Shown here in pieces: positions 1,020 to 55,699 of a DNA stretch of 64,000 bases. Within the stretch, counting starts at the first letter, position 1. The number at the start of each line of letters is the position of its first letter. The notes under the pieces are model-generated. The model did not search any database. It was not told where the DNA came from and saw only the letters and a list, made by a program, of their open reading frames with translations. The DNA comes from Saxidomus purpurata (lineage: Eukaryota > Mollusca > Bivalvia > Venerida > Veneridae), in contig JAFMSR010000008.1 in NCBI GenBank assembly GCA_022818135.1, positions 35,822,055 through 35,886,054 of the forward strand, given 5' to 3'. A program made the translations under genes and the position numbers.

Positions 1020-1253
1020 ATAATATCGGCTCTGAATTCAAAATCTTTCAAGCAACATACGAAAGGACTTATTGCAGTCTGAATCGTCCACCGGATACAA
1101 TAGAATCCCAGTCTGATAATTTAAATATAACATTTTTTCGGGGTGAACGGCGTCCGTTCGAGGTTCCCTATACGGAAGGATTCAAACTAATTTACAATAT
1201 TATGAACACGTCGTATGAACACCTCACAGAATACGACACGCGGCAGACAAAAG
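1020..1253 (+). CDS. Exon 1 of window: C-terminal half of a CUB domain
   Basis: Acceptor 'cttttgcag' ends at 1019 and the donor is gtttga at 1254; phase 1-1, 77 codons. The peptide shows the second half of a CUB domain: a 'TYC' cysteine, an 'SDNLNITFF' strand equivalent to the usual 'S-x-L-x-I-x-F', then 'GFKLIYN' near the end, matching the CUB 'GF-x-A-x-Y' strand. The first half of the domain, with its first two cysteines, must be on an exon upstream of the window; nothing in 1-1019 looks like it. CUB domains are extracellular protein- or carbohydrate-binding modules. Confidence 0.75.
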
Positions 1254-4200: not shown

Positions 4201-7200
4201 GTTCAAAGAATTCCATTCCATGCAGAACTCTGGTTGACATGGCAAAAAAATAGGAAAAACTTAAAAAATCTTCTTCTCTGAATCCACAAGGCCTAGAGCT
4301 TAGATATTTGGCATGTAACATTGTCTAGTGGACCTCTACCAGGATTGTTCAAATTATGACACCCGGGTCAAAATTGACTCCGCCCGGTGGGTCACTTAGT
4401 TTTACATAGGCTTACATAGGAAAACTTCTATAATCTTCTTCTCTGAGAGCACAAGGCCTAGAACTTAGATATTTGACATGTATCATTGCCTAGTAGACCT
4501 CTATCAAGAATGTTCAAATTCAGACCCCCGGATCAAAATTGACACCGCCCCGGGGGGTCACTTAGTTTTACATAGGCTTATATAGAAAAAAATCTTCTTC
4601 TCTGAAACCACAAGGCCTAGATCTTATATAGTTAGCATGTAGCATTGCCTAATAGACCTCTTCAAAATTTGTTCAAATTATGGCCCTGGAGTCAATATTG
4701 GCCCGCCCGGGAGGTCTCTTGTTTTACAAAGACGTATATAGGAATTCGTAACCTAACATTGTCTAGTGGTCTTCCACCTACTTTGTTCAAATCATGCTTC
4801 TTGGGTCAAAATTGATTTTTTTTCACCTGAAATTGTGAGCGAGCTATTTTAATTATTGTTTTCCTGTTGCAGATTTATTTCATGCTGCTTGTACATATTG
4901 TGCATGATCAATTTAAGTTGATTGGCAGTTATTTACTAAAAATTATATGCGCACAGCTGAGATAACTGTATACACCTTGGCAATCATGATTGAAAGATTG
5001 TATGCTAAAGATAAATATTAGTATATGTGATTGACAAAATCCTGTTACAAGCAAACCACGTACATTCCTAGTTTAGTTTAGTACCACTTAGGATACCTTT
5101 GTAACATTTTAAACACATTTCATGTGAACCAATAACTAATTTCTAACTTGTATTTATAATAAATATCTATTATATTTTGGACCAGCAACCTGTTCTGTCT
5201 ACTGTTGTGCCTTCGCTCAGACCTGCAAGACTTGTAGGAAATATGAATAAATTTGTAAAATCCACCCAGTAATTTCTAGGCATTCTAGCTATAGTAACAA
5301 CAACAATTTATACAGTCAAAGTTATTTTGTTGATTTGCAGTCTTGGCAGTCTGCTTCGTGGTTTCTGGGTCGATCGGTATTGTAAACTGTCTAGTGATGG
5401 TGATTGTTTTGGATGCATACTGTAAATTGGGTTATTTTTCGTGATGAAAAGTTTACGATTTGTGAGCAGACAGACTTATTCGCGAATTTTATATACGCGA
5501 TAGGAGAATTCTCTTATGGTAAATCTTTGTGAAATGAATCTTTGGCAAAATTGTTAAATTAGCAAAGTTGGAAATTCGTGAAATAGTGAAAATTTAATCA
5601 TCGCAATTATTACCAAATTTACAGTAATATTAAAAAAGCGAGCTTGAATTTTTTAAGCTCCGAATCATTTACATTTTGCAGTAAAAAATGTTGCATTTGG
5701 AAAACCTGCAATAATAAAGGGAAGTCATGTGGCCACCAATAGATTTGACCCTGTAGAAAATGCGACTTCTCAGTTAAGGAATGATGGCATTATAGGGTGT
5801 TTTGACATAGGAATTCGAGAAATCTCTCCTGACTACTGGTGGATAGTTGATTTACAAGATACTTACATTCTAAAATATATAGCCATGTTCTATGACGAAC
5901 AAAAACGTAAGTAGTATGTGCGTTGCACTTTGGTTTTCGAAATTTCGAGTTAATATCAAATGTATAGCAAATCGATTATTTATACGTTCAGCTGTATGCA
6001 CGTTCAAGAAAGTTTAAAAGTTTACAAAAGCTTTTGTAAATTTTATGTCATACATGTTAAACAGCATCACAAATTACAATACTTACAGTAACGTGGTATA
6101 AGCTCTTACTACAGATCAGTGCAGATGTGTTGTTTGATCTTTTCATCCCGCGACATAGTCAGTACTGTAAGGATGTACCGAGACCTTTAAATACCGAAGA
6201 AAGAATCAATAAGTTTACACTATATTTATTTTTACAATCAACCGTGTGTGAATTTATATATAATAAACAATTTCTAAATATAAACTTTGTTCATGTACCT
6301 GCATCTTTGAAATCTGTGCAGATCTAATCATATTTATCTTTATCAATTTCTCTATCTTTCTATCAATAGTATTGTGGTACATCAATTTCTTAAGGTCAAC
6401 TGTTCGGACAAAACTTCGGAACTTTTAGAATGTTTAACCAAATACGTATTAATTTCGGATGAAAACATTATATAAATTGTTGAAGAACAGCATATCAATA
6501 CCTAAAAAATTTGTTCATTCTTTACGTTCATCCTTTTATTTATTTTACACAGGAACGAAGGTTTAACTTAAACTTTTCCGTCCAGTCTTTTTTCAGTGTT
6601 TACCTATATTTCGTAGTTTAAGTTATAAGTTAATAGGTACTAAAGGAAAATAGCTTACCACCGACACGCGGAAATGTTCCAAACAAACAAGTTTACAGTA
6701 ATTTTCAGGTGAAGAAGACGTTGTCAGAACCATCGAAATTTCAACCGGTATATATGCAGAAAACATACCCATGACATCTTTCCACTGTGGAAAGCCTAAA
6801 AGATGGGAGACCATTTATCAACATGACATCCATGCCAGATTTGTAAAGATTAAAGATGTGTTATCACTCGTAGACCAGTCACCTGATCCTTTTTCGACAG
6901 ATTATCTGATGCAGTTAATTTTATGTGAAGTTGAAATATATGGCATTTTAGGTAAGTAAACAGCTGTATACATGTATCTTTTGCAACAATGTGGTACACA
7001 TGTAGTAAGCGGTACTGTCTATATAAAACAACAAGACAATGATGCGGTATATCGCTCACTTACCGAAACAGAGTTGTTTTTTAGCTCACCTGGATATACC
7101 AGGTCAAACACAGCACTCATAAACAGGCAGACTATCCTCCAACTATATTAAAAGGCAAAATACAAGGTAAACACGTCAGTCTATATATTAACTATTTAGA

Positions 7201-28039: not shown

Positions 28040-28110
<71 letters not shown>

Positions 28111-34100: not shown

Positions 34101-37100
34101 ATATTATCCCAATACTGCAAATAGATCTAAAATGTCTGGGCTAGGTAAAACAGGACTTTCGTACAATATTTATTCGTTTTAATTTTTTGCCCTCGACATT
34201 TCGGCTAGCCTGCGGACAACCGGGACCCGGGACAGAAAAGCCGCTTGTCTAACAGCAGAAAGTCCTGTGCCAGACATGTCGGACCCCCTCTGTACTATGG
34301 GTTGGACATATACAGCAGCGTCCAATAGTCTAATTAATTTGGTGTTTCAGTGAGACCCCTTTCACAGATCTGTTATTTATAACTAGAAGGTGAACAACTT
34401 GAAAATATCAGCCTATAAAATCGGTTTGCCTTCGAAGTCGAAATGCAGTATCCAACACTCATCTACAGATTTTTATATTGGTTGGAATAAAAAAGAATTG
34501 AAATACATGTAAATATACATATCGTTATTAATCTACTGGTCTGACTGTCATGTTTGCAGTTTCATTTTTATGGCCGGAGTAACTACGCCCCTGTTCATTG
34601 ATTTGTAATTTTTTCTTAAATTCAACGCCCCGACCGCACGGCTTTTAAAGTAAAAACACTGTTCACAAGGGAAACTTGTCGAATTCACTGTCGGCAGTAG
34701 AGAGGGAACTTGGAGTATGATAATACAACGTCCGTACAAGTAAAGATTTTGGCAGATGCACTGATTATGTCAGTACGTACAGTACGGCAGTAGATACTTA
34801 GTATGTCAGCAGACTTCCTTACCTTTTGTGGCGACGCTCTGTGAAATAAAGAAGTTCCAGTACCGCCGGAGACAAAAATATTTTTCACGCATCGGTGTAC
34901 TCAATTATTGATAATTTCGTCAATTTAATTACTTTCGTTGACATTTTGTTCCACTTTGGCAAACAAAATTGACAAGGCGAGTTGAGAAACAGACTGAAAA
35001 ACGCATTTTATGAAAAATGCATCACAATATATTTTTTCAAGAAACGTCATTATGAATTGTGTTGGATAACATGTTACTGCAATGGAATTCCGATGTGTAA
35101 AGTTCCGCGAATATAATTTACATGTAAACTAATTCATAAACTTACGGTCTACACTTATAAATGCAATGATACCGTAGCTGAAGGAGATCTCTTTTAAAAG
35201 AGTATATATTAATCAACATTTTAAATAAAACAGAAGATCTATATAATTTATCTCGCAGTCACTACAAAATACGCGAAGAAACCTATATTTAACATTATTA
35301 AATACTGTTTGTCACTTGCATTAAAATTATCATGCGGGTTTTTGGGCGGAGCAAATTGACGACCTGAGAAAGAAGCTGGACGCTCGCACCTAAATTCCCT
35401 TGAATGGGGAGGAATTAACCTATAAACTAGCTCTAATAATAGTTTCAAAATTGCGCTATGAGTGACGTAAGATTATAACTGTATCGATTGCCAAGATAGC
35501 GATCGGGCAAACCCAACTGCAACGCGTTGTATGTTTGTGTGCTAATAATAGAATATTACAAATTTATGCATATTATGTTACAATATAGGTCCAGTTGCGT
35601 CATTAAAAAACAATATATATTTATGATGCAAATTAATGGCCTCACAGTTTATTGGATTAAATTGCTAGTTTACAACTACAAAGTTTACCATGTTAGATCT
35701 TTTTAGAACACAAAATGTACAGGCTATGCACAGATGTTTGTCATGAAAGTCATTAGTAGATAAAGACCTCTTATTTTGAAATATTTGAATATTTCAAGTG
35801 TATTCTATTATTGAAATATTTAAAGAAAAAATTGTATTCTAATGTTGAAATAGTTGAAGAAAGACTCAGTGTACATGTTTTATAAATACTGATTCATAGC
35901 AGATAGTAATTTTTAAGGTATGATGGCGTTAAATGGTTTTGTGATTTCCGGTGACATATATGCCTGGACTGCGGTGTTTATACTGCCGATTAATTCTGCT
36001 CTGAATCCTGTTTTATACACACTGACTGCCATTCTTGGCAAAACGGTTTGTATTAAATATTGTCTTTTTAACTACTGTCATAAGTGACGTTGCTTCTTTA
36101 CACTGTCATAAGTGACGTTGCTTCTTCATAAATACTAAACATGTAACTAACAACACATGTTGTTTTTTTTAATTGCACGATTTATTGCGATAGTAGTCTC
36201 AGCAATAATTTGCAAAATGTAAAGGTTATCGAAAAATTAGTGACCTTTTTGCTTTTACTTTTAAAAAGACATTGTTTAAACAAAAAAGGATCAGTAATAA
36301 GACATACAAAAAGTTGAGAAAAAAAACAAAGTTATATTATATGTTATTTGGTTTTTGACGTCGTATATGGGGATATATTACTCGCCTAAATTAATATTAC
36401 CCGAGCCGTTAGGTTTAACGTAAGCAGACCTTCAAATACCCTTATGACACCCCATGTCACTTCATGACGTCACTTAATAACTTCACGCACCAACACGTAC
36501 TAAAACATTGACGTACTGTTGGCGAACATTCTCATGCTTAGCGTGGGGTACAATGACGGAAAGTGTATATTACCGGCTTGCCATTTAATATCAATATCTA
36601 TTTGCGGGTCATTGACAAATTAAACGGCTGGAAATTTCTTGGAAGGGTAATAAATATTCCCAGTCTTTTTATATTCAATTTTCAGTTTATAATATTTTTA
36701 TTTCGTTTTCAGAAATTTAATCCAGATACTGACGAACAAAATCGTACTCAGCTTACCGAAGGTATATGATAAAAACCTCCTTTAAATTATTTTTGATTTT
36801 ACATTGAATACTTACTTTTCTATCGAGAACGAGGCTTCTTCAATCGCCAACAACAAAGGAAAGTAGAACAGGAACGGAAGTTTGGCTAACTTAACTATTC
36901 TATAATTCAGTCTTACATGTATTTCGGTTTGACAGTGCAGTCGTCGGAAAGTTCCAAAAATAGCCTTTGTCAATATATTGAATTAGTGATACATATATTA
37001 TAGGGACTGATAATAATGCATTTTATTTAACTACGTAAATATTTGTTTTTAATCTGAGTTTTACGGCACACGGCTTTTTATAGAAAGGTTCATACATTGT

Positions 37101-40100
37101 AGTCACTTTTGCAATCAAGACATTGCTGATCTTTCGACATTTGAAATATGACACGAAAACAAAAAATTCTCATTTATTACTGCAGTATTCTGAATTATTT
37201 TCGCAGATTTATCTTGATACATCGTCTTTAAAATGATATTGAAAACATTTGCTTGTAAACGACATTTTTAACATATCAAGAATGGAAAATAACTTATCAA
37301 TAACGACGGTTGAATTTGCAGTCTGTTGCTAGATCGGCAGTTACAACTTTTATCAAAGAAGCGATCACGTGATCAAGACGTTTGTTGAACGATTTTGCAA
37401 CTGGCAATTTTTGAAGTCATTCTCACAATCACGTTTTATAATATCGCAGATAAATTTGATAGATTCTGATTGGTCAAGATCCCCTGTATATGAGCCTGTA
37501 TACACCGTGAGGAATCCCGTATATACCGTCTCCCATTGAGGCCTCATCGTTTTTGCTCTTTCTGATTGGCTAGAGAAGCTTTGTAAACTTTGTTTACATT
37601 CAAAACAAAATTGCCGCCGTCCCACCGATTCAATTTTTTCAGCGTCGTTTGTAAGCACTGCACACGTCGTTTGGAAAAGTAATTCAAATTGAAAGGCATT
37701 AAAACTAACATTGATGCTATCTTTACCTTCGTTTCTCCCCAGACAGAACGGGTTACGGACATAAGATATCATCTCGTTCGATCAAGTTCCTTTTCCATGA
37801 ATCTCAGTGAGTGGCAATGGAATGTTGTTTTTTTCTTTAAATAAAAACACTGTCATTGACACTAATAAGTACTCTTCTTCAAATTAATGGTATTCCTTTC
37901 TGCATATTATATTTTCGTTATATAGATCCTTGACGGGGTATACCTGACGGCTCGGGTTATAACAATTCGAACAGGCTATACGAGGCCGTATACCCCGTCA
38001 ATAATCTATATAACTAATTATATATCTACTAATTACAAAATACCTGTTTTTGAAGAAATGCTTCCGATCCTAATTATAAGATTCGTGTAGTGTTAAAATA
38101 TACATATAACATATTTGTAAAATTATTTCATAATGGACTGCATAACGAAGGACTTTAAAAGAGCACATTAGTGTGTAATAAAAGTATATACTAGTCGAAT
38201 GCGGCAAATAAACACATGCACCATCATGTGTGATCTGAATATTTGGACGATTGCATAACAGAAAACATTAACAGATCATATTCACTATTCAAACCTACAT
38301 TGAGTATACTTCTGTCAGCTCTTCAAATATAATTGCTCTTTCTAGATCGAAAGATGTCTTATGATACCATTTTGAAACGAAACAACCTTCAACTGTTCCT
38401 GTTCCTGTATATTTATCTTCCAAAGAACAAATCGAAAATTCACCCGAGGAGGTTTAAATCTCACCCGAAGACAAAACTTCCAATCAAAATAATTTATTTC
38501 ATTCACCGCGCTTTCCCTCGTAACTTTTGATTGGTCCAAAATATAGGTCAAAATCCAACTTATTAAGGTACCGCCGAAAAAAAGATAATGTAGATTGAAA
38601 TGATTTAGTTCCGCAATCTACCAGTGGTGTAGGCAATGAGTGCAGAGTACAAATCAGAACAACAACAAACCGCAACGTACCGGCCGTCCTTCTAGATCAG
38701 CAAAATTCTAGGCCTAAAAGCCAAAATACGAAACATATAATAAACCATAAACAGTTCATCAAACCATTAACGTTAACAGTACAAAAAGAGGAAAACAAAG
38801 CGAAAACGATGTACAAGAGAGGACTGCCGTAGAAAATAAACTTGTCTATTTGCGATTGATTTTCCTGCGTTAAAAGTTTCTTTATTTCTTCGCTATATTT
38901 CTGATGACAAACGATCCCAATGCTAATAACGTTAACCAGAAAGATGATATAGTTTAGCATTTACATTTTATTGATGTTGTTGCTTTATCTTTGAATGTCA
39001 TATAAAACAGGACACAAAAGAGTGGGTGTGCCAAAACGTTTGTGTATGATTTTACGTGACATACAGTAAAATTGTGTATTGTGTTGGATTAATAGGTGAC
39101 TGTAATGTACATGATCACATTACAGCCAGCATAAACTCCGAAGATATGACTCGTCCATTTGTATGTGCTATATTAAAGATGCTCGCTCTCAGATTCTGTT
39201 GTGAAAACAAGGTTCTTCGAACTGTCTGAAATATTTAAGAACAAATCATCAAATAAAATAGTTCTAGTATACATTCCTGTGAAGTATGTTTTATATTTTT
39301 GAAAAAAATAAAGTAAAATATAAACAGTTCCATATAAAATACATTGTGGCGGTGCCCCTATATGTTGAACATATTTTCTCAAATTCTATATTTGTTTTTT
39401 GGGAAATTTAATTTTTTGACCGGACTGTGAACGAGCAGCATTTAAAGAGTAAACGGACCATTTCTGAATATAACTAAATATATCAAAATCTTCTTACATA
39501 TTAAAATCCCTGTTTATATTATTGCGGATTTTTAACGACCCTAAAAGTGAAAGAACAGTTTAAAAGCAACGATTATGTTTTGCTTCAGATTTTGGAAACT
39601 ATTTCAAAGATTGTCGACAGGTAAACAAATACATCTACTCCTGGGCTGAACCAAAACCAAAGTACAAAAGTGTAGGTTTCGTTTTGGAAAATGAAATTCT
39701 TATTCCCGTACCAGCACTTCTTAAATTATCTGCTAGGTTAGCCAAGGTTCTCGACGTAATTCACAGAGGTTCGTTAGTCATGGGAAACCTTAGCAAGAAT
39801 ACAGTGTATTTGAGACTGTCTGACAACCAGGTATGAAAAATGTATTTAAGGTGTTTCAATATAGTTTACATCAGCAGAATATATTTATATAACTATTATT
39901 TGAGAGGTGATCTCTAAACTGAAGGGTAAAAGCAGTTAGGACAGTTTTGCGGTCAGAACGCGTCATCCTCGTTTACCTCGAATTCTTACGTGCGTTTTAT
40001 ATATGGGAATAGAAGGTAAACCGATTTTACTGCATTGACATTGTAGAGTTGTCCGCCCTCTATGTCTCACTTTAATGTACGACTGGCCGTGTACACATCC

Positions 40101-40943
40101 CCAACATAATTATTTGGGCACTTACGAACGCAAATTAATCCAATATTTAAATGTATTTAAATATATTTATGATTTTACACGGAAGGTCAGTTTTAGTAAC
40201 CGAGTACCTGTTGATATACGGCCTGCATGCAAAAATGCATGTTTAACTTTATACATCTACATTTTTATTAAGAGTTGAGATTTTTAATAAACTTTTAAAT
40301 TATCAGGTAAAATGATAATTAATTCTTCATAGTTGTGATTTGAACGAAACAAATGTGTATTATGTTGTACACGATACTGAAAGTCAACTTTCCACTAATT
40401 ATGGAACGCATCAAAATTAGGCGTAAAGGTGTGACAGTTAAAAATTGTCAGACTATGAAAGGGCCAAATTAATCGTTGTCCAGAAATATCTTTTAACGGT
40501 TAACTACGCCACGTATATATCCTATGTGATAATAAATGGCGAGTATAGCAATCGGAGAAAGCTATATACATTTATTTATCGTATAACTATCATAAATACA
40601 TAAATCCTGATTGGCTGATAGAAATAAATCGTCGTCCATAAATATCGTTTGACAGTTTATTTACACCTCGTCTATATCTGATGATAAATGAGGCTTCGGT
40701 AGTTGATAAAACTATATTCATTTACATTGATCATGTTTCGTGTGTTATGTTTAAAATAGAAAAACTTGTAAGTGATTTAAATTTTGATTATTTTTTCAGA
40801 TAACAGGAGAAATGATACTAACGTGCGAGCCACATACATCAAAGAGGTCAGCCAACTTATCAAACGATATGCTAGCAACTGGAATACTTATAAATTGTTT
40901 GCTTAGAAAAGTTATTGCTAAGGACCCAAAGCAAATACATTGA
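1020..40943 (+). CDS. Giant multidomain leucine-rich-repeat GPCR (GRL101 / relaxin-receptor-like), 5'-partial, 28 exons
   Basis: Gene model assembled by eye: join of 1020-1253, 5682-5906, 6709-6951, 8113-8163, 8834-8908, 9183-9329, 10825-11058, 11232-11310, 12153-12298, 13181-13429, 14020-14250, 20513-20653, 21043-21198, 22066-22179, 22370-22546, 23234-23419, 24370-24611, 28262-28392, 29060-29229, 29655-29792, 30075-30191, 30965-31504, 31720-32620, 32925-33454, 35918-36045, 36713-36761, 39589-39830, 40800-40943. Every junction has GT/AG ends and matching phase, giving one open frame of 2,005 residues. Residues are numbered from the window's first codon. Order: CUB (1-77), fucolectin-like (78-233), linkers, TSP1 (276-324), C-type lectin (325-477), two kringles (478-637), LDLa modules (638-870), Cys-rich region (871-1122), LDLa (1123-1161), vWFA-like (1162-1341), LDLa, LRRs, 7TM (about 1342-1861), kinase-like tail (about 1878-2005). 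It is a plasma-membrane receptor with a long ectodomain; the ligand is unknown. The start codon and signal peptide lie upstream. Whether every exon is in one transcript needs RNA. Confidence 0.85.
1360..1553. repeat. Short MITE with TACAGTAAACTC termini
   Basis: The left end TACAGTAAACTCTGTATATA (1360) mirrors the right end ending GGAGTTTACTGTA (1553). The interior repeats 'tatatccg/cggag' blocks. Termini of this CAGTA-type with TA flanks are typical of pogo/Tc1-mariner-related MITEs. A degenerate relative lies at 46396-46577. It is inside intron 1. Confidence 0.65.
2050..3780. repeat. Degenerate dispersed repeat with internal tandem units (intron 1)
   Basis: No coding signal. From 3062 to about 3780 the sequence is built of diverged units of about 165 bp, each with a phrase like 'ggtttccg(a)tc/gct...aacttt(tgaaa)aggttg(c)atggatttgattcagatttta' and 'cagg(a)gtaatggcccctt'. 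From about 2300 to 3060 shorter repeating phrases occur ('agttgaggagaaa.gttgaccta'). It looks like old non-autonomous repeats. Confidence 0.5.
3804..4852. repeat. TIR element, GCTGCTCGCTCTCAG family, copy B with nested repeat
   Basis: The left end at 3804-3824 matches copy A and is followed by the same interior ('aaataacat.tttgaac...agtcata', 'attcctgt'). The right end is degenerate at 4826-4852 (ctgaaattgtgagcgagct). Between about 4095 and 4815 lies a second family with about 170-bp repeated units ('cttcttctctga..ccacaaggcctagagcttagata', 'caaaattgactccgcccgg'), also seen at 40981-41510. Confidence 0.65.
5682..5906 (+). CDS. Exon 2: first half of fucolectin/F5-8C-like domain
   Basis: Acceptor 'cattttgcag' ends at 5681 and the donor is gtaagt at 5907; phase 1-1. 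The peptide begins KNVAFGKPA, continues with TNRFDPVENAT, a cysteine at IIGCFD, and then 'YWWIVDLQDTYIL'. This is the classic N-terminal layout of eel-fucolectin/tachylectin-type and F5/8 type C galactose-binding-like domains (N-x-A-x-GKP-A ... WW-x-VDL ... I). The family folds as a jelly-roll and often binds fucose or other glycans. I do not see the canonical His/Arg-x-Asp fucose-binding signature, so sugar binding is uncertain. Confidence 0.85.
6709..6951 (+). CDS. Exon 3: second half of fucolectin/F5-8C-like domain
   Basis: Acceptor 'attttcag' ends at 6708 and the donor is gtaagt at 6952; phase 1-1, 80 codons. The peptide includes a 'SFHCG' cysteine, then 'IHARFVKIKD' and the terminal 'LILCEVEIYG', the conserved closing strands of fucolectin/F5-8C domains (A-R-Y-V-R-I ... 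L-x-L-C-E-V-E-V-Y-G). It completes the domain begun in exon 2. Confidence 0.85.
8113..8163 (+). CDS. Exon 4: short charged linker
   Basis: Acceptor 'ttatttccag' ends at 8112 and the donor is gtagta at 8164; phase 1-1, 51 nt. It encodes a basic 16-residue stretch (RKVDEHRRKFYIDSTK) with no recognisable domain. The support is splice-site quality, phase match and position between the lectin-like and TSP1 domains. It is one of the weakest exons in the model and could be a cassette exon or absent. Confidence 0.45.
8370..8708. repeat. MITE, GAGGCACTCCCTA family, copy 1
   Basis: It starts 'gaagaggcactcccta' and ends with the inverse 'ctaggaagtgccc'. Just inside the right end is 'gaaaatataatctgctag'. 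Other copies are at 9911-10105 and, truncated, at 27857-28042. It lies in intron 4. Confidence 0.6.
8834..8908 (+). CDS. Exon 5: short linker before TSP1
   Basis: Acceptor 'ttttcctcag' ends at 8833 and the donor is gtaagt at 8909; phase 1-1, 75 nt. It encodes a short charged peptide ending 'TYKCPSQKN' with one cysteine. There is no known domain. Good polypyrimidine tract, consensus donor and in-phase junctions support it. Confidence 0.5.
9183..9329 (+). CDS. Exon 6: thrombospondin type 1 repeat
   Basis: The exon starts after 'tgtacttgaag' (a weak acceptor without a long pyrimidine run) and ends at donor gtagga at 9330; phase 1-1, so the TSP1 module sits on one symmetric exon. The peptide begins GEFGSWSLWSDCSEKCGPG, with the tryptophan ladder W-x-x-W and CS-x-x-CG. 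It continues with KQRTRVC, CLLED, YQICEGNTSCP, giving the six TSP1 cysteines. TSP1 repeats are often C-mannosylated and O-fucosylated and bind extracellular matrix or receptors. Confidence 0.9.
9911..10105. repeat. MITE, GAGGCACTCCCTA family, copy 2
   Basis: It starts 'ttaaagagacactcc' and ends 'gtagggagtaccccttt', with the shared interior 'attgaacacattattta.gttttgagaatataatctgctag'. It is shorter than copy 1 and lies in intron 6. The rest of intron 6 (9330-10824) shows nothing else I can name. Confidence 0.6.
10825..11058 (+). CDS. Exon 7: N-terminal part of C-type lectin domain
   Basis: Acceptor 'cttaatttcag' ends at 10824 and the donor is gtaatg at 11059; phase 1-1. The peptide opens WHCSVSFKKCYSIF and continues with 'SNWKLARQECSRRNLSLVSINSVEE', the standard CTLD pattern (W-x-x-A-x-x-x-C-x-x-x-x-x-x-L-x-S-I-x-S-x-x-E). 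The cysteine spacing is that of a long-form CTLD. The domain is completed by the next two exons. Confidence 0.88.
11232..11310 (+). CDS. Exon 8: middle of C-type lectin domain
   Basis: Acceptor 'tctttttcag' ends at 11231 and the donor is gtaagt at 11311; phase 1-2, 79 nt. The peptide is GLHLKYTNFGTKNYIWEKG..., matching the CTLD 'IGL ... F-x-W-x-x-G' core. It ends inside a tryptophan codon (TG|G) completed by the next exon. The asymmetric phase is confirmed because exon 9 begins with the single G needed. Confidence 0.8.
12153..12298 (+). CDS. Exon 9: C-terminal part of C-type lectin domain
   Basis: The acceptor is 'tttcaag' ending at 12152 and the donor is gtaagt at 12299; phase 2-1. After the completed Trp the peptide reads KGGEPSIGSCVRMNY, then TWESEDC, then DSFVCE. 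This is the closing block of a C-type lectin (EPN-like 'EPS', C-V-x-M, W-x-x-x-x-C, F-x-C-E). The calcium-site motif is EPS rather than EPN, and the usual WND triplet is replaced by WES, so mannose-type calcium-dependent sugar binding is doubtful. Confidence 0.85.
12519..12945. repeat. Foldback MITE with TGACGTCA and a long hairpin
   Basis: It begins 'attatagagtgttctcagtg' and ends 'attatcctctata'. Inside, 12794-12836 and 12876-12920 are inverted copies (tcggtgtaatatcacgtt ... aacgtgatcttacaccga). A smaller hairpin surrounds 'ataatccac..gtggatta' near 12550. A partial relative starts at about 24640 and an inverted relative at 53318-53440. It lies in intron 9. Confidence 0.65.
13181..13429 (+). 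CDS. Exon 10: kringle-like domain 1 (1-6 disulfide missing)
   Basis: Acceptor 'tattttgccag' ends at 13180 and the donor is gtatat at 13430; phase 1-1, one exon per kringle. Kringle signatures are clear: 'TITGKTCQAW' (T-x-SG-x-x-C-Q-x-W), 'TPHFQ' (PH), 'VQNYCRDPF' (NYCRNP) and 'LWCYTMD' (PWCYT). Four of six canonical cysteines are present (Cys2-Cys5). The first and the last, which pair with each other in kringles, are both gone, so the loss is of a complete disulfide rather than a random decay. Confidence 0.85.
14020..14250 (+). CDS. Exon 11: kringle-like domain 2
   Basis: Acceptor 'tttttttcag' ends at 14019 and the donor is gtaaaa at 14251; phase 1-1. The peptide shows 'SECSDVLSRYNGK' (Cys1 and the Y-x-G loop), 'TVGGKVCERW', 'AENYCRDPNENG', 'VWCFI' and 'WEPCS'. 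Cys1-Cys5 are present and Cys6 is absent, so Cys1 is predicted to be unpaired within the domain. It is a tandem relative of exon 10, sharing the exon boundaries. Confidence 0.85.
14561..14787 (-). mobile_element. tRNA-derived SINE, family 1, minus-strand copy
   Basis: On the minus strand it runs from a tRNA-like head with box B 'GGTTCGATCTTCAC', through 'ggcaagac', a CT-rich part and 'catttggtgtgagtctcgagagc', to 'taagttgtaagaacttcgtt'. The same order is found on the plus strand at 18375-18600. Both are in intron 11. Confidence 0.75.
15233..16625 (+). repeat. 1.4-kb microsatellite-headed dispersed repeat, copy 1
   Basis: It starts 'tatgcccctttcgaagaagagggg', carries (GGTC)n and (GTCC)n runs at 15278-15300 and 15487-15522, and is then built of roughly 160-bp units with 'aactcgagaacgctcgggcct', 'cttgaaacttgatgtggagg' and 'aaggtcacagtgaccc'. 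It ends 'gttttacaaacagctcttgtt'. Copy 2 at 25810-27380 has the same ends. A small insertion at about 15770-15878 is flanked by a repeated 'attgattttt', like a target-site duplication. No ORF of note. Confidence 0.75.
16772..20417. mobile_element. 3.6-kb element with inverted arms of about 0.65 kb (foldback transposon)
   Basis: The left arm, about 16772-17450, is the reverse complement of the right arm, about 19740-20417. Matches include 'ttaaggtaggtcgc' at the left and 'gcgacctacctta' at the right end, 'cacctagcgggga'/'tccccgctaggtg', 'ctgtaggggcgacaatttt'/'aaaattgtcgcccctacag', and 'tgacgtgacgtaac'/'gttacgtcacgtca'. The middle (17450-19740) has no transposase ORF that I recognise and hosts a SINE. 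The short ORFs in each arm mirror each other and are not genes. It sits in intron 11 between kringle 2 and the LDLa exons. Confidence 0.8.
18375..18600 (+). mobile_element. tRNA-derived SINE, family 1, plus-strand copy nested in the 3.6-kb element
   Basis: The tRNA-like head has box B 'GGTTCGATCCCCACC' (18423), then 'ggcaagacaaaac', 'tctctctctat', 'catttggaatgagtctccag' and 'taagttgtaagaacttgtt'. An A/T-rich tail (aaaaaataaattaat) closes at about 18600. It matches 14561-14787 in the opposite orientation. Confidence 0.75.
20513..20653 (+). CDS. Exon 12: degenerate LDLa-like module
   Basis: Acceptor 'gtattccag' ends at 20512 and the donor is gtaaat at 20654; phase 1-1. Only the C-terminal half of an LDL-receptor class A module is recognisable: 'IPFESKCNRLVDYEDLSDE' followed by 'TNC'. 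It keeps the acidic DxSDE calcium motif and two cysteines; the cysteine normally in 'DC' is Tyr here. The first half (TQGKDISINITNG) has no cysteines and one possible N-glycosylation site. Confidence 0.7.
21043..21198 (+). CDS. Exon 13: degenerate LDLa module
   Basis: Acceptor 'gcatttcag' ends at 21042; phase 1-1. 'YFLCGTKEYVSIIAVCDRV' is followed by 'VDCIDASDEMHC', an LDLa module with four of six cysteines and an intact calcium-binding D-x-SDE motif. A donor is available either at gtacgt (21199) or gtaaaa (21203). I chose the first because only that one keeps phase 1 and completes the last Cys codon (T|GT) with exon 14. The N-terminal 20 residues are a Pro/Thr/Ser linker. Confidence 0.75.
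22066..22179 (+). CDS. Exon 14: canonical LDLa module
   Basis: Acceptor 'ttatttcag' ends at 22065 and the donor is gtaagt at 22180; phase 1-1, one module per exon. The peptide CSPNEFRCDDGDCIHISQVC followed by DFTVDCIDESDEFC has all six cysteines and the full calcium-binding acidic set. LDLa modules bind ligands through calcium-organised acidic pockets. In relaxin receptors the single LDLa is required for signalling. Confidence 0.92.
22370..22546 (+). CDS. Exon 15: canonical LDLa module with extra N-terminal Cys pair
   Basis: The donor is gtaatt at 22547. The LDLa reads ACLRTKFECSNGQCIDTENR, then CDGLVNCFDGTDEQNC, with six cysteines. The acceptor is ambiguous: 'aattgtag' ending at 22369 or 'atttttcag' ending at 22429 both give phase 1 and keep the frame. 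They differ by 20 residues carrying the short motif 'LCDFKNPCDFSG'. This is a candidate alternative 3' splice site. Confidence 0.85.
23234..23419 (+). CDS. Exon 16: canonical LDLa module plus start of Cys-rich region
   Basis: Acceptor 'ttaactcag' ends at 23233 and the donor is gtcaga at 23420 (weak); phase 1-1. LDLa: VCNHEDLFNCDSVKCIPRR, then LLCDGLADCDDKTDESSC. After it comes 'TCEQWLDAGYRKSGAYNI', which resembles the opening of fibrinogen-related domains (C-x-x-W-L-x-x-G-x-x-x-SG-x-Y-x-I). The rest of that region is on exons 17-20. Confidence 0.85.
24370..24611 (+). CDS. Exon 17: Cys-rich extracellular region, fibrinogen-like start
   Basis: Acceptor 'ttattccag' ends at 24369 and the donor is gtaaat at 24612; phase 1-0. 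The peptide contains 'IACNFDLQSGTVTTVFKNRD', which resembles the 'V-x-C-D-F-x-x-x-G-W-T-V' strand of fibrinogen-like domains, then a non-matching segment with 'DKFVLYYGNENG' and 'NKYRCSMW'. I cannot assign the full domain to a family. The phase 0 exit is confirmed by exon 18 being open only in that phase. Confidence 0.75.
25810..27380 (+). repeat. 1.6-kb microsatellite-headed dispersed repeat, copy 2
   Basis: It has the same start ('tatgcccccttcgaagaaga'), the same GGTC/GTCC microsatellites (25839-25873), diverged 160-bp units ('aactcgagaacgcttgggcc', 'ggtcaaggtcactgtt') and the same end ('gttttacaaacagctcttgt') as 15233-16625, in the same orientation. It is more degraded and has G-runs (27107-27126). 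It lies in intron 17. Confidence 0.75.
27857..28109. repeat. Truncated MITE ending in a 67-nt poly-T run
   Basis: 'aagaggggacactctctaca' and 'taacagattataaaattcta' mark a third copy of the GAGGCACTCCCTA family. It is lost in homopolymer: A9, T8, C7 and T9 runs, then about 67 consecutive T at 28043-28109. Exon 18 begins 153 nt downstream, so the tract might act as an extended pyrimidine tract or be an assembly artefact. Confidence 0.6.
28262..28392 (+). CDS. Exon 18: Cys-rich extracellular region
   Basis: Acceptor 'ttattctcag' ends at 28261 and the donor is gtaagt at 28393; phase 0-2. The peptide starts FTETCAPVHAALLDFDVSYY and ends 'FPCK', with four cysteines. It has no domain name that I recognise. 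The other two frames hit stops, and only phase 0 in and phase 2 out connects exon 17 to exon 19. Confidence 0.7.
28465..28775 (-). mobile_element. tRNA-derived SINE, family 2, minus-strand copy
   Basis: On the minus strand it has an excellent box A (TGGCCGAGTGGTTAACG, 28748-28764) and box B (GGTTCGATTCTC, near 28710-28721). A conserved core 'tgtatcggtgctatacgcc' follows, then 'aaaagaacca'. It shares that core with 50941-51190. The tRNA part resembles a Ser/Gly-type tRNA, but the long body shows it is a SINE. It lies in intron 18. Confidence 0.75.
29060..29229 (+). CDS. Exon 19: Cys-rich extracellular region
   Basis: Acceptor 'aaattacag' ends at 29059 and the donor is gttagt at 29230; phase 2-1. 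The peptide QNRCMNPYTSMLTCDAGFVE is followed by an aromatic-rich stretch ('FWISWSSEFY', 'KYWQAIQINMGPFECTR'). It is part of the same unassigned domain as exons 17, 18 and 20. Confidence 0.7.
29655..29792 (+). CDS. Exon 20: end of Cys-rich region
   Basis: The acceptor is 'tttttttgaag' ending at 29654 and the donor is gttagc at 29793 (weak); phase 1-1. It encodes 'DLACDGDVKLIGNTLKC', then 'NVDALGYALGCR' and 'SHLQNC'. I believe this C-x-x-D ... GCR ... HLxNC block also precedes an LDLa module in molluscan GRL101-like receptors, but that is from memory and unverified here. Confidence 0.72.
30075..30191 (+). CDS. Exon 21: canonical LDLa module
   Basis: The acceptor is 'cattcaaatag' ending at 30074 and the donor is gtaaat at 30192; phase 1-1. 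FKCAEGLVKCPRSYCIPIRF followed by VCDGDIQCPGGEDETNC has six cysteines and an intact calcium site. It sits directly before the vWFA-like exon. Confidence 0.9.
30965..31504 (+). CDS. Exon 22: vWFA-like domain lacking a canonical MIDAS
   Basis: The acceptor is 'ctcaaaactag' ending at 30964 and the donor is gtacgt at 31505; phase 1-1, 179 codons, about one vWFA domain on one exon. The layout is Rossmann-like: a hydrophobic strand 'EIIILVDYTF', a helix, a second strand 'SIVRVLNYDVD', a helix ending 'ILADRLLEHL', then 'KAVIFLQTGSHARLVADALF' and 'FQAGIYLYRL'. A vWFA MIDAS needs D-x-S-x-S; here the equivalent is D-Y-T-F-L, so metal-dependent ligand binding is probably lost. The family call rests on fold-like pattern and length only. 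Confidence 0.65.
31720..32620 (+). CDS. Exon 23: LDLa, LRRNT, leucine-rich repeats, LGR hinge, TM1-TM2
   Basis: Acceptor 'atttttcag' ends at 31719 and the donor is gtgaga at 32621; phase 1-2. LDLa: HCPGMYKCTSSKMCISFDNL, then CDGVINCIHGDDERLC. The LRRNT cap is 'CPDICICAAYSVNC'. About five LRRs follow, with L-x-x-L-x-L-x-x-N cores such as 'VRQLDLSMN', 'LVRLNLSNC', 'LRTLDLRFN' and 'LEFLYLSHN'. The hinge 'FKFCCIRP' ... 'FSSCEDLM' is diagnostic of LGR receptors. TM1 is around 'LWLVGLSAFFGNILSLVY'; TM2 holds 'LAVSDLLMGVYL', which matches relaxin-receptor/GRL101 type C LGRs. This exon fixes the family. Confidence 0.95.
32925..33454 (+). CDS. Exon 24: 7TM core, TM3 to TM6
   Basis: Acceptor 'atatttgacag' ends at 32924 and the donor is gtgagt at 33455; phase 2-1. 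TM3 ends 'LFLCLITLDRLFVIKYP', with the DRY motif as DRL. The ECL1 cysteine is in 'SGWCNLAG'. TM4 is 'ACVVWSLSLVFAVLPVVYE', the ECL2 cysteine is 'SGVCIALPL', and TM5 is 'SVTIFVGLNFLSFLMITF'. The third intracellular loop is short and basic (RVNKMKSARKKD). TM6 has the conserved 'DFLCWFPIGVM' (C-W-x-P). Confidence 0.95.
33530..35540. mobile_element. 2-kb element with 135-bp terminal inverted repeats
   Basis: 33530-33665 is the reverse complement of 35400-35540. Examples are 'acaacgcgttgcagttgg' at 33537 against 'ccaactgcaacgcgttgt' at the right, and 'aatcttacgtcac' against 'gtgacgtaagatt'. The interior has no transposase-like ORF; the small ORFs there look like chance. It lies in intron 24, between the exons for TM6 and TM7. 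Confidence 0.7.
35918..36045 (+). CDS. Exon 25: end of TM6 and TM7 with NPxxY
   Basis: The acceptor is 'aatttttaag' ending at 35917 (AAG, weaker pyrimidine tract) and the donor is gtttgt at 36046; phase 1-0. The peptide starts GMMALNGFVISGDIYAWTAV and includes 'LPINSALNPVLYTL', the TM7 NPxxY motif. It directly continues the TM6 of exon 24. The donor is chosen at phase 0 so as to join exon 26. Confidence 0.9.
36713..36761 (+). CDS. Exon 26: proximal cytoplasmic tail
   Basis: Acceptor 'tcgttttcag' ends at 36712 and the donor is gtatat at 36762; phase 0-1, 49 nt encoding KFNPDTDEQNRTQLTE, a polar post-TM7 segment. If the donor is not used, the frame stops two codons later (at tga, 36768-36770), which would give a receptor isoform with a very short tail. 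Confidence 0.7.
37921..38010. repeat. Near-perfect 23-bp hairpin
   Basis: 'tatagatccttgacggggta' and three more bases at 37921-37943 pair with 37988-38010 (gtataccccgtcaataatct...), around a loop holding 'ctcgggttataacaattcga'. It lies in intron 26 in an AT-rich setting. It could be the terminus of a palindromic repeat. Confidence 0.6.
38697..38960 (-). CDS. Hypothetical 87-residue hydrophobic ORF antisense to intron 26
   Basis: ATG to stop. It has an N-terminal hydrophobic stretch (MLNYIIFLVNVISIGIVC), a polar segment with 'YSEEIKKLLTQENQSQIDKF', then two more hydrophobic stretches (SPLLYIVFALFSSFCTV and CLWFIICFVFWLLGLEFC). This would be a three-helix membrane peptide. I recognise no family. 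It might be a single exon of an antisense gene or a chance ORF. Confidence 0.22.
   Translation of the reverse strand: MLNYIIFLVNVISIGIVCHQKYSEEIKKLLTQENQSQIDKFIFYGSPLLYIVFALFSSFCTVNVNGLMNCLWFIICFVFWLLGLEFC
39174..39448. repeat. TIR element, GCTGCTCGCTCTCAG family, copy C
   Basis: 'taaagatgctcgctctcaga' (39174) and the inverted 'ctgtgaacgagcagcattta' (right end to 39448) bound 275 bp with interior phrases 'tacattcctgtgaag' and 'gtggcggtgccc' shared with copy A. It lies about 140 nt upstream of the exon 27 acceptor. Confidence 0.75.
39589..39830 (+). CDS. Exon 27: cytoplasmic pseudokinase-like segment, helix E and catalytic-loop region
   Basis: Acceptor 'tttgcttcag' ends at 39588 and the donor is gtatga at 39831; phase 1-0. 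After 'YKSVGFVLENEILIPVPALL' (a possible hinge strand and helix D) comes an amphipathic 'KLSARLAKVLDVIHRGSLV', then 'MGNLSKNTVYLRL'. This parallels kinase helix E and the catalytic loop (L-A-x-x-L-x-x-L-H ... H-G-N-L-x-x-x-N-V-x-L). The HRD His-Arg-Asp is replaced (M-G-N), so it could not be an active kinase. There is no VAIK lysine or Gly-loop exon between here and TM7. Confidence 0.72.
40800..40943 (+). CDS. Exon 28: terminal exon, pseudokinase helix F-like region and stop
   Basis: Acceptor 'attttttcag' ends at 40799 and the TGA stop is at 40941-40943; 47 codons plus stop, entering in phase 0. The peptide has 'ANLSNDMLATGILINCLL', which matches kinase helix F (S-D-x-x-A-x-G-I-L-L-x-E-L-L). 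It carries no DFG and no APE in the preceding stretch (ITGEMILTCEPHTSKR). The protein ends shortly after, so the lower C-lobe helices are missing. No AATAAA is seen soon after the stop, and a dispersed repeat begins about 40 nt downstream. Confidence 0.72.
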   Translation: MTGEMILTCEPHTSKRSANLSNDMLATGILINCLLRKVIAKDPKQIH

Positions 40944-47067: not shown

Positions 47068-48060
47068 ACAAGAGGGCTATGATGGCCCTTAATCGATCAC
47101 TTGAGAACCATTGCTCTACAGGACAAAAAGTCAAAAGGTCAAAAAAGTCATTCAAAATAAATACTGTAATTGATTTGCAAAACTGCATATGCATGGTCCA
47201 TGTTTCATCTCTGTAGTTTCAAAAGAAGAAAGTAAGTCAAAATGTCAGGATCAGGGTCACAGTCATCCAAGGTTTGCTGTAGCTTCAAATACATCAGAAT
47301 AGGCCGAAAGGTCATGGCCAAGATCACTGGGCGTGGCTAGGTGTGGCCAACTTCAACCACAGGGACATGGTCTGAATAAAGTTGGTAGTTGACCATTATA
47401 CACTGTATAGTATACTATGTAAGTCTAAGTTAAAGAACGTACCACCTGGCCGTGACCAATTTCAACCCCGGTATATGATCTGAACAGACTTGGAAAAGAG
47501 CCACTACACAATACCATAAACCAAAGATCAAAGCCGTTACAAGATTTTAACGTTTTTCCTAAATAAATCATTGTAAAACAAGTGACCACTGGGTCAGGGT
47601 CAATTTTGACCCTGGAGTCATGATTTGAACAATCTTGATAGAGGCTAGACAATGCTGCACACCAAATATCTAAGATTTAGACCTTGTGGTTTTAGACAAG
47701 ATTTGTTTTGAACATTCCCTATATGAGTCTATGCAAAACAAGTGATCCAACGGGCGGGGTCTATTTTGACTCCAGTGGCATAATTTTAACAGTATTGAAA
47801 GAGGTTTACTAGACAATGCTATACACCAAACATCTAAGAGATGTGCCTTGCCGTCATGGAGATGCAGATTTTTAAAACGTTTCCTAGTTGTAGCCATAGC
47901 AACCAAATGTCTGCACGGAATATAATTCTTTGAACAACTTTGATGGAGGACTACCCAATGTGTATTCTTTGAAGTTTGGTTGAATTTAGCCAAGTGGTTT
48001 ATGAGAAGATTTCATTTGAAAAAATTGTTGAATTTCAAGGGAAGTACTCCTGTTTGTCCT
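47068..48060. repeat. Dispersed repeat, 'caagagggctatgatggccc' family
   Basis: The start 'caagagggctatgatggccc', then 'aatcgatcacttgag', is the same head type as 44366. It continues with 'tgaccctggagtcatgattt' and 'ctaagatttagaccttgtgg' units that are the inverse of those at 4095-4815. It inserts between the duplicated flank and the GPCR gene at 48795. Confidence 0.6.
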
Positions 48061-52120: not shown

Positions 52121-52344
52121 ATAACAACGTGTATTTTTGAAGTTGGATATCAATCGTTAGCTTTGTTGACATTATACAAATGTAAGAGAATAACGTTCAA
52201 ATTGAAGTTTGTATGTATGAACTTTCTTGTATGCGGCATAATGTTTGCATTGTCAATAACTATGGGTCTTTATTCATAATTCCTTTATGATATCAGTTGC
52301 TTTTACATCACATATTGCCCTCACACAATCGTTTGCGGTCAAAA
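52121..52344 (+). pseudogene. Broken third copy of the seven-helix receptor
   Basis: On the plus strand it reads 'ITTCIFEVGYQSLALLTLYK', 'CKRITFKLKFVCMNFLVCGI' and 'MFALSITMGLYS', then a stop. It is the TM1-TM2 part of copies A and B with D-to-G in 'CGIM'. After a deletion of roughly 25 codons it resumes as 'ISVAFTSHIA' (start of TM3), where 'SVDRM' has become 'LTQSF'. There is no start codon, a premature stop, and no later helices. It ends exactly where the foldback element begins. Confidence 0.8.
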
Positions 52345-55185: not shown

Positions 55186-55699
55186 TGTAAACAATGTTTA
55201 ATTTTCAGTACTATGAAAATATAGCAGCTTATGGTATCATATATTAATTCAATTTAAAATTGTAACAGACTTGATAACGTCAAAGTAATGTTCCGACGAA
55301 TGCACTTTCGAATTTCAGTCTATAAACACAAAGCGAAGTGCACGAAAGTTTCTATTGTCATTTAGAAATAGAACAGCTAATCCAACAATACTATATTGTA
55401 AAATTGCATTCATAAAATTAACAGCATCTTTTACATTGAGAAATACATACTATGTTATCCCAGTTTGTGCAAAAGGCATAACCTTAGAAACACCAAGAAG
55501 AACTGATCTTTGACATGTTGTCAGAACATAATTATGTGCTGCGCGTGGTCAGACTTTACAAAGGATGGTCAGAAAGTTTAAAACGCTAAAACACTGCAGA
55601 ACATTTAAAAGGGTGTTCCCGTAGCAAAATAGACTTTAAGACTTGGGATCAATTTCTAAGAAATGGAACTGATTTAATAAGAATACCACTGAAAGCGTC

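What the first reader, a model, noticed from the sequence alone, without database searches (positions are those of the whole stretch)
1020..40943. A single receptor gene combining CUB, fucolectin, TSP1, C-type lectin, kringle, LDLa, vWFA-like, LRR and 7TM
The sequence directly shows these modules in order on one strand, with 27 phase-matched junctions. Known GRL101-type LGRs have LDLa and LRR modules before the 7TM. I know of no described GPCR that also carries kringle, C-type lectin, TSP1 and fucolectin domains. It would be a glycan- and matrix-sensing LGR. The joining of all exons into one transcript is inference.
Basis: partly seen in the sequence, partly recalled or inferred. Interest (0 to 1): 0.9.

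Follow-up and report, generated by a model that had tools for sequence, protein, structure and literature searches.

The report
Mosaic clam receptor with kinase-like tail
This stretch of clam-like DNA holds most of one very large cell-surface receptor gene that strings together lectin-like, kringle and other binding modules in front of a hormone-receptor-type core and ends inside the cell in a decayed kinase, and it belongs to an old animal receptor family whose trigger is unknown.

Summary
The finding holds: 1020-40943 (+) is best read as one gene, open at its 5' end. A 3212-aa Mercenaria protein (P0002) matches all 14 parts in the same order. Of 120 listed relatives, 13 carry C-type lectin, kringle and 7TM matches, 13 of 13 in this order; 9 carry the CUB half, 9 of 9 upstream in order. 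The receptor is a type C2 (GRL101-type) LGR, but outside the classic GRL101 lineage: a rooted tree gives two bilaterian lineages, classic (99/95) and 'giant' (100/96), and this gene is in the second. Arthropod relatives share that tail; hemichordate and octocoral relatives have longer kinase-like tails. The vWFA domain is real by fold. 'Glycan-sensing' is not supported at residue level. Ten searches of an open-licence library found neither this lineage nor its tail described.

The parts
1020..1253 (+). exon 1: C-terminal half of a CUB-like domain; gene continues upstream of the window
   Evidence: 43% to P0002 at 911, E 1e-13; no Pfam hit in the window piece; P0002 counterpart CUB E 0.022; found in order in 9 of 120 relatives
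5682..5906 (+). exon 2: F5/8C / F-type-lectin-like domain, first half
   Evidence: 36% to P0002 at 985, E 7e-20; Pfam F5_F8_type_C_2 E 0.11, P0002 counterpart 2.8e-10
6709..6951 (+). exon 3: F5/8C / F-type-lectin-like domain, second half
   Evidence: tblastn P0002 1064-1127, E 5e-7
9183..9329 (+). exon 4: thrombospondin type 1 repeat
   Evidence: PF00090 3.9e-10 on the ORF
10825..11058 (+). exon 5: C-type lectin domain, part 1
   Evidence: tblastn P0001 51%, 4e-16, fixes the 3' end
11232..11310 (+). exon 6: C-type lectin domain, part 2
   Evidence: joined CTLD PF00059 2.8e-9; acceptor and donor
12153..12298 (+). exon 7: C-type lectin domain, part 3 (EPS ... WES)
   Evidence: tblastn P0001 67%, 5e-14
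13181..13429 (+). exon 8: kringle 1 (first and last Cys of the usual six absent)
   Evidence: PF00051 1.2e-13; 55% to P0001
14020..14250 (+). exon 9: kringle 2
   Evidence: PF00051 1.8e-8
20513..20653 (+). exon 10: degenerate LDLa 1 (2 Cys)
   Evidence: PF00057 0.003, below cutoff; tblastn P0001 48%
21043..21198 (+). exon 11: LDLa 2 (4 Cys)
   Evidence: tblastn P0001 56%, 9e-13
22066..22179 (+). exon 12: LDLa 3
   Evidence: PF00057 2.4e-10
22430..22546 (+). exon 13: LDLa 4
   Evidence: PF00057 5.2e-10
23234..23419 (+). exon 14: LDLa 5 and first residues of the fibrinogen-like domain
   Evidence: PF00057 5.5e-9
24412..24611 (+). exon 15: fibrinogen-like (MID) domain (alternative acceptor 24370)
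   Evidence: alignment to P0002 spacing; profile A4 hits fibrinogen-domain chains
28262..28392 (+). exon 16: fibrinogen-like (MID) domain
   Evidence: alignment with relatives
29060..29229 (+). exon 17: fibrinogen-like (MID) domain
   Evidence: alignment with relatives; weak acceptor score
29655..29792 (+). exon 18: end of MID, conserved GCR..SHLQNC box
   Evidence: tblastn P0002 49%, 1.5e-13
30075..30191 (+). exon 19: LDLa 6
   Evidence: PF00057 1.1e-7; 70% to P0002
30965..31504 (+). exon 20: von Willebrand A-type domain, one exon, ends marked by two invariant Cys, no DxSxS
31720..32620 (+). exon 21: LDLa 7, leucine-rich repeats, LGR hinge (FKFCCIRP..SSCEDLM), TM1-2
   Evidence: LRR_8 5e-18; hinge columns nearly invariant
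32925..33454 (+). exon 22: TM3-TM6 (DRL, CWFP)
   Evidence: 7tm_1 7.6e-22
35918..36045 (+). exon 23: TM7 with NPVLY
   Evidence: tblastn P0001 88%, 8e-17
36713..36761 (+). exon 24: start of the cytoplasmic tail
   Evidence: tblastn P0002 67% over 15 aa, E 0.25; phase
39589..39830 (+). exon 25: tail, kinase C-lobe-like (LH...G.L...V.L)
   Evidence: profile A3 vs PDB, best VRK3 1.9e-8 over this part
40800..40943 (+). exon 26: tail end (DM..G.L...LL), stop TGA
   Evidence: alignment A3; stop

Best explanation
What it is (shown by sequence): one gene for a very large type C2 (GRL101-type) LGR of the 'giant' C2 lineage. Its order is [upstream part outside the window]-CUB-F5/8C-TSP1-CTLD-2 kringles-5 LDLa-fibrinogen-like-LDLa-vWA-LDLa-LRR-hinge-7TM-kinase-like tail. 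How it works (inferred): the outer modules catch a partner, more likely a protein, matrix or microbial surface than a sugar in the classic lectin way. This repositions the LDLa7-LRR-hinge block next to the membrane, which switches the rhodopsin-type 7TM as in relaxin and glycoprotein-hormone receptors. The tail is not an enzyme; it is a pseudokinase remnant acting as a docking platform. The shuffled ectodomains of the clam paralogues, and the CTL-bearing snail receptors in the same lineage, point to surveillance of foreign or altered surfaces. Steps shown: gene structure, family, domain kinships, loss of catalytic motifs. Steps inferred: ligand class, activation, tail function. My odds: one gene from kringle to 7TM about 0.95; CUB and F5/8C on the same transcript about 0.88; the functional story about 0.5.
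For: Single gene: 25/25 GT-AG, open frame; P0002 14/14 parts in order; 13/13 CTLD+kringle relatives collinear to the 7TM in three genera; 9/9 CUB relatives collinear. The N-half alone found 3 proteins among 3478 candidates: two match in kringles only, the third (P0121, 438 aa) begins inside a CTLD and runs through kringles into an LDLa, so it looks like a fragment that itself crosses the supposed border. No signal-peptide-like first exon in 14250-20513 in a crude scan. Family: top hits GRL101-type, Pfam, Foldseek of relative P0047 finds TSHR, FSHR, LGR4, LHCGR, RXFP1. Lineage. vWA. Fibrinogen-like: (50 of 52 chains at E<=10 are fibrinogen-domain proteins, 4 below 1e-3, best 3.6e-4). Tail: (646 sequences at E<=1, the 60 shown are kinases); a mollusc-only tail profile finds 13 of 16 arthropod/priapulid tails, 3 of 3 hemichordate classic ones, 0 of 36 other classic ones, 0 of 217 shuffled. 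Immune hint: PMC12297450 (passages) and the tree position of snail CTL receptors.
Against: No transcript of this gene was available. The 6.3 kb intron 14250-20513 and weak splice scores at exons 1 (donor), 8, 17 and 23 rest on homology. The relatives are themselves mostly predicted models. CUB and F5/8C are weak in the window alone; only 2 of 120 relatives match F5/8C and 2 of 120 TSP1. P0001, the nearest by TM, begins just before TSP1, and a possible first exon lies at 8767-8908. Immune role: only association in a snail; a hormone role is proposed for GRL101 (PMC8286064, passages). Tail: the mollusc profile finds it in only 2 of 10 deuterostome giants and 0 of 3 cnidarians, and 27 rows outside the classic clade lack it. 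Single-sequence evidence is weak for a hemichordate tail (P0141: 22 PDB sequences at E<=1, best 0.038), and the window's own tail has no Pfam match.
Confidence: 0.55

Rival explanations
1. Two adjacent genes: a secreted or membrane lectin/kringle protein (exons 1-9) and a GRL101-like LGR (exons 10-26) on the same strand.
For: 6.3 kb intron at the supposed border; several clam relatives are annotated without the lectin/kringle part, e.g. P0003, P0004, P0013, which could be fragments or real short forms; P0121 is annotated as a short CTLD-kringle protein.
Against: 13 of 13 CTLD+kringle relatives run on into the 7TM; P0121 starts inside the CTLD and reaches an LDLa, and its contig has the same length as that of P0005, P0017 and P0019, so it is probably a fragment; phase 1 matches; no first exon with a hydrophobic start found in the intron (crude).
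Confidence: 0.04
2. Exons 1-3 (CUB, F5/8C) belong to an upstream gene or a longer isoform, and a main transcript starts near 8767 before TSP1.
For: A possible first exon 8767-8908 (ATG, hydrophobic stretch, phase-1 donor score 5.8); P0001 begins shortly before its TSP1.
Against: P0002 has CUB, F5/8C, TSP1 and CTLD in one protein; the CUB half precedes the CTLD in order in 9 of 9 relatives that have it; P0001's start does not read like a signal peptide (by eye).
Confidence: 0.08
3. Orphan hormone receptor: an insulin/IGF-related peptide binds the LRRs and the LDLa cluster (the Veenstra hypothesis for GRL101), while the outer modules only hold the receptor in the matrix.
For: Type C LGRs of the C1 branch are relaxin-type receptors (PMC11863921, passages); PMC8286064 (passages) proposes IGF for GRL101; the TM part is the best conserved (74-76% to P0002 and P0001).
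Against: The hypothesis was built on GRL101 with an ectodomain of LDLa and LRR, as in the classic lineage here; this gene is in the other lineage. Ectodomains vary between paralogues of one clam, unlike a hormone receptor.
Confidence: 0.25
4. Adhesion or matrix receptor that couples attachment (shell, byssus, hemocyte spreading) to G-protein signalling through TSP1, kringle, vWA and fibrinogen-like modules.
For: vWA resembles VWF A1 and mussel byssus PTMP1 among others; fibrinogen-like domain; sugar motifs lost.
Against: No expression or binding data; no MIDAS in the vWA, so no integrin-like metal-dependent binding.
Confidence: 0.2
5. Pseudogene or decaying copy.
For: Degenerate LDLa 1, kringle 1 lacking two Cys, modules present in P0002 missing here (a second TSP1+F5/8C pair and a third kringle).
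Against: 1929 codons without a stop or frameshift and GT-AG at all introns; P0001's matching kringle also lacks the first Cys, so that loss is shared.
Confidence: 0.04

Closest known systems
P0002 / LOC123558066 of Mercenaria mercenaria ('uncharacterized protein', 3212 aa)
   Same: all 14 parts in the same order, 29-74% identity per part
   Different: has more upstream sequence (ApeC label, another CUB), one more TSP1+F5/8C pair and one more kringle
Classic GRL101 / arthropod LGR5, type C2 LGR
   Same: LDLa cluster, LRR, LGR hinge, 7tm_1; three hemichordate members also have a kinase-like tail
   Different: sister lineage; no CUB, F5/8C, CTL, kringle or TSP1 label in 26 of 26 listed; kinase-like tail not found at 1e-3 in 36 of 36 non-hemichordate members tested
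SudRes2 GRL101-like receptors of Biomphalaria sudanica (PMC12297450, passages seen)
   Same: LRR, LDLa and an N-terminal C-type lectin on a GRL101-type 7TM; other snail CTL receptors (Bulinus, Elysia) fall in the same lineage as the window gene
   Different: no kringle, fucolectin, thrombospondin or CUB in the text (word counts 0); the B. sudanica sequences themselves were not in my tree
Amphioxus Adhesion GPCRs with kringle, lectin C, CUB, LDLa (PMC2246102, passages seen)
   Same: similar module set on a GPCR
   Different: Adhesion class; the window gene has 7tm_1 and no 7tm_2 or GPS hit
RXFP1/2 (type C1 LGR)
   Same: LDLa-LRR-7TM; RXFP1 is among Foldseek matches of relative P0047
   Different: one LDLa (recalled), none of the outer modules (recalled)

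Membership tests
Type C2 (GRL101-type) LGR | rhodopsin-type 7TM with LRR ectodomain and LGR hinge | tested here: met
   7tm_1 2e-28, LRR_8 2e-15; hinge Cys columns conserved
Type C2 (GRL101-type) LGR | several LDLa modules before the LRRs | tested here: met
   7 stretches, PF00057 5e-38; 5 of 7 with six Cys
Type C2 (GRL101-type) LGR | groups with C2 rather than C1, A or B receptors in a tree | tested here: inconclusive
   nearest relatives with an informative name are GRL101-named, but no C1, A or B rows were knowingly put in the trees
Classic GRL101/LGR5 orthologue | falls in the classic clade | tested here: not met
   window gene in the sister clade, 100/96 against 99/95; root on three cnidarian rows, 97/75
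Classic GRL101/LGR5 orthologue | ectodomain of LDLa and LRR only | tested here: not met
Adhesion GPCR | 7tm_2 and GAIN/GPS | tested here: not met
   neither among the Pfam matches at E<=1
vWA domain | alpha/beta vWA fold | tested here: met
vWA domain | MIDAS DxSxS metal site (recalled motif) | tested here: not met
   VDYTFL in the window, variable in relatives; VWF A1 also lacks a metal site (recalled)
F-type lectin (fucolectin) | F5/8C-like fold | tested here: inconclusive
   Pfam E 0.11 in the window, 2.8e-10 in the P0002 counterpart; only PDB match FBP32, E 0.94
F-type lectin (fucolectin) | fucose motif H..RxDxG..R/K (recalled) | tested here: not met
   alignment: CFDI and YDEQKREEDVVR in place of CFHT and RxD..R
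C-type lectin | CTLD fold family | tested here: met
   PF00059 2.8e-9, above cutoff
C-type lectin | EPN/QPD and WND sugar site (recalled) | tested here: not met
   EPS and WES
Fibrinogen-like domain | sequence kinship to the FBG family | tested here: inconclusive
   profile A4 hits angiopoietin-1 at 3.6e-4, mostly over the first third; Pfam only COLFI 0.03 in 2 of 8 members
Protein kinase-like (pseudokinase) | kinase C-lobe sequence signature | tested here: met
   profile A3: VRK3 1.9e-8, the 60 shown of 646 are kinases; PK_Tyr_Ser-Thr in 4 of 21 members, not in the window member
Protein kinase-like (pseudokinase) | HRD and DFG catalytic motifs | tested here: not met
   VMGNL and no DFG in the window tail
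Protein kinase-like (pseudokinase) | N-lobe | tested here: not met
   tail of 144 aa, only the C-lobe part aligned; longer tails of 300-394 aa in hemichordate relatives

The most novel reading that the evidence does not exclude
Type C2 LGRs began, before cnidarians and bilaterians parted, as a fusion of an LRR-type 7TM receptor with a cytoplasmic kinase-fold domain. In Bilateria they split into two lineages. The classic GRL101 lost the kinase part, as far as tested, outside hemichordates. The 'giant' lineage kept its C-lobe as a pseudokinase and gathered CUB, F5/8C, CTLD, kringle and fibrinogen-like modules and, in clams, vWA and TSP1. That is an unrecognised class of rhodopsin-type GPCR with mosaic outer domains and a built-in pseudokinase scaffold, used in invertebrates as surface-recognition receptors and amplified in clams.
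Probability: 0.5. Interest if true: 0.87.

Novelty: new variant of a known kind. Interest (0 to 1): 0.72.

Why it matters
GRL101, first described in 1994, is still called an orphan receptor (PMC11863921, passages). If C2 LGRs are two ancient lineages, ligand hunts and models built on the classic LDLa-LRR form miss half of the family: PMC8286064 (passages) reports a single GRL101 in each ambulacrarian species studied, Patiria among them, yet Patiria, Diadema and Lytechinus each have one protein of each lineage here (trees 49, 82). A pseudokinase-type tail on a rhodopsin-class receptor would be a new kind of signalling link, testable at once. Snail CTL receptors of this lineage resemble those in a schistosome-resistance locus, so the lineage is a candidate set of innate recognition receptors that signal through G proteins.

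Tried and rejected
Counterparts of P0002's second TSP1+F5/8C pair and first kringle: no match in 6951-9183 or 12298-13181. A separate tail model from exon 25: alignment A5 seems to put its first residues on TM7, so it was not folded. Instead I folded a whole relative, P0047 (pLDDT 77.1, pTM 0.46). Its tail 1071-1180 has block means 61-91 and the order helix-helix-strand-strand-helix, which fits a kinase C-lobe by my reading. The 50 Foldseek matches shown for that model are LGRs and LRR proteins, so the tail fold is not tested by structure. Own genome: not reached.

P0121 also matches the CTLD (47%, 5e-27) and an LDLa; the text now says so. The candidate first exon at 8767-8908 was added as a rival.

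Limits of the counts: one search scored the 7984 candidates sharing most words and listed 120 of 168; all counts 'of 120' use that list. Searches used model versions that differ from the final one in exon 5 (before) and exon 15 (before). Domain labels were typed by hand from the Pfam column. One search left 12 of the 121 TM rows out before the tree (109 used: 58 with the tail label, 51 without, 24 of these in the classic clade). One search used 80 rows chosen by hand. The 26 'classic' rows are 24 tree rows plus P0080 and P0118, placed by hand. Strict order with kringle 1 before kringle 2 held in 4 of 13; with the two kringles pooled, in 13 of 13. Tail profile A3 contains the window tail itself; cross-clade results use the mollusc-only profile, which contains it too.

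PMC12297450, PMC8286064, PMC2246102, PMC6267866, PMC11863921, PMC4079206: passages only. The library holds open-licence papers only, so absence in print is weak evidence.

Full report
1. The gene. I rebuilt the exon chain from splice signals and open frames and corrected it with relatives. The final model has 26 exons between 1020 and 40943, all 25 introns GT-AG, one stop at the end and 1929 aa. It has no start in the window. Most ectodomain exons begin and end in phase 1.

2. Is it one gene? P0002, an annotated Mercenaria protein of 3212 aa, matches every one of 14 parts of the model at E<=1e-3 in the same order: CUB 911, F5/8C 985, TSP1 1355, CTLD 1412, kringles 1684 and 1751, LDLa 1852 and 1947, MID 2064, LDLa 2291, vWA 2331, LDLa-LRR 2507, TM 2755, tail 3075. 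One shuffle of each part gave 0 hits. P0001 (1875 aa) matches 12 parts, from TSP1 on. Of 120 listed relatives, 13 carry CTLD, kringle and TM matches, and all 13 have them in order through LDLa, MID, LDLa, vWA and LRR to the TM. They come from Mercenaria (10), Mactra (2) and Ruditapes (1). The CUB half is matched in 9 of 120 and lies in order before the CTLD in 9 of 9; F5/8C is matched in 2 of 120 (P0002, P0007) and TSP1 in 2 of 120 (P0001, P0002). A search with the N-terminal half alone, which admits proteins of about 330 to 1040 aa, found 3 proteins among 3478 candidates. Two match only in kringles. The third, P0121 (438 aa, Mercenaria), begins at residue 32 of the CTLD, runs through kringles into an LDLa and stops; it looks like a fragment of a family member and crosses the border itself. 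A crude scan found no signal-peptide-like first exon in 14250-20513, but one at 8767-8908 before TSP1.

4. Residues. LDLa 3-7 have six Cys; LDLa 1 has two and LDLa 2 has four. Kringle 1 lacks the first and last Cys; P0001's matching kringle lacks the first as well. The F5/8C domain has lost the fucose motif and the CTLD reads EPS/WES (motifs recalled). So classic sugar binding is not supported. The 7TM keeps CWFP and NPVLY, with DRL for DRY.

5. The tail. After TM7 the protein runs on for 144 aa. A profile of 21 tails (A3) matches 646 distinct PDB sequences at E<=1. The 60 shown are kinases, best VRK3 at 1.9e-8, with the match over the part that in kinases holds alphaE and the catalytic loop (element names recalled). 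Pfam PK_Tyr_Ser-Thr matches 4 of 21 members, best 8.5e-5; the window's own tail has no Pfam match. A profile from mollusc tails only finds 13 of 16 arthropod or priapulid tails, 2 of 10 deuterostome giants, 3 of 3 hemichordate classic GRL101s, 0 of 36 other classic tails, 0 of 3 cnidarians and 0 of 217 shuffled proteins at 1e-3. The hemichordate classic proteins have 300-394 aa tails with Pfam Pkinase at 2.1e-5, 2.3e-6 and 5.2e-5, all below Pfam's cutoff; one of these tails alone finds 22 PDB sequences at E<=1, kinases by name, best only 0.038. An octocoral relative (P0217) has a 283-aa tail whose best PDB match is IKK-beta at 6.6e-4, and the 60 shown of 217 are kinases. HRD and DFG are not kept in the window tail. 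So the tail most likely descends from a kinase-type domain, of which this gene keeps the C-lobe part without catalytic residues.

6. Family. Two trees of the hinge-7TM region were made (109 rows, quick; 80 rows, careful, cnidarian outgroup). The second gives a classic GRL101 clade (26 rows, 99/95) and a second clade (51 rows, 100/96); the root branch has 97/75. Both hold protostomes and deuterostomes, which puts their split before the bilaterian ancestor if the root is right. The window gene lies in the second, in a set of 11 rows (100/97), itself and ten clam proteins. Of the 94 listed proteins outside the classic set, 62 have CUB, F5/8C, CTL, kringle or TSP1 labels; of 26 classic ones none has. 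Of the 18 kringle labels, 12 are in Mercenaria and Mactra, one in the freshwater mussel Sinanodonta and five in echinoderms. Snail receptors with CTL (Bulinus, Elysia) are in the second clade. The tail label needs 8 changes on the first tree, and 27 rows outside the classic clade lack it, so losses or incomplete models are frequent. The founding Lymnaea GRL101 was not identified by accession; a Lymnaea protein (P0124) is in the classic clade.

7. Function. Nothing here shows a ligand. GRL101 has been proposed as an IGF receptor (PMC8286064). CTL-bearing snail relatives lie in a locus associated with schistosome resistance, and the authors discuss recognition (PMC12297450). A starfish GRL101 is expressed in sensory tentacles (PMC6267866, passages). 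I favour surface recognition because ectodomain labels differ strongly between paralogues of one clam (19 Mercenaria proteins among the 120) while the TM part is 74-76% identical to P0002 and P0001. My confidence in the mechanism is moderate; in the gene and family it is high.

8. Novelty. The class (C2 LGR) is known and CTL-bearing members are in print. The full mosaic, the two-lineage split and the kinase-type tail were not found in ten searches of an open-licence library, which is weak evidence of absence. I rate it a new variant of a known kind.

Noticed in passing
48798-49742 (-) and 54244-55197 (-): two single-exon ORFs of 315 and 318 aa, 81% identical over 316 aa, with several hydrophobic stretches and no real Pfam match: a tandem orphan family that looks like 7TM receptors; a 48-aa fragment (87.5%) lies inverted at 52121-52264
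   Followed up: partly
15391-15663 (+), 25790-26029 (+), 47428-47676 (-): ORF fragments that share peptide pieces (RPSTNWF..DSRTLGPRILKL in the first two, a related look in the third, by eye), probably an interspersed repeat (ORF list)
   Followed up: no
17028-17234 (-) and 19869-20160: a repeated stretch encoding RWINDSTLHL on opposite strands inside the large intron
   Followed up: no
28700-28775: a tRNA-like stretch on the minus strand by eye; ARAGORN reports no tRNA in the window
   Followed up: partly
8767-8908 (+): possible alternative first exon (ATG, hydrophobic start, phase-1 donor) just before the TSP1 exon
   Followed up: partly
P0140, P0141, P0143 (hemichordate classic GRL101) and P0217 (octocoral): long cytoplasmic tails with kinase-like sequence and altered catalytic residues
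   Followed up: yes
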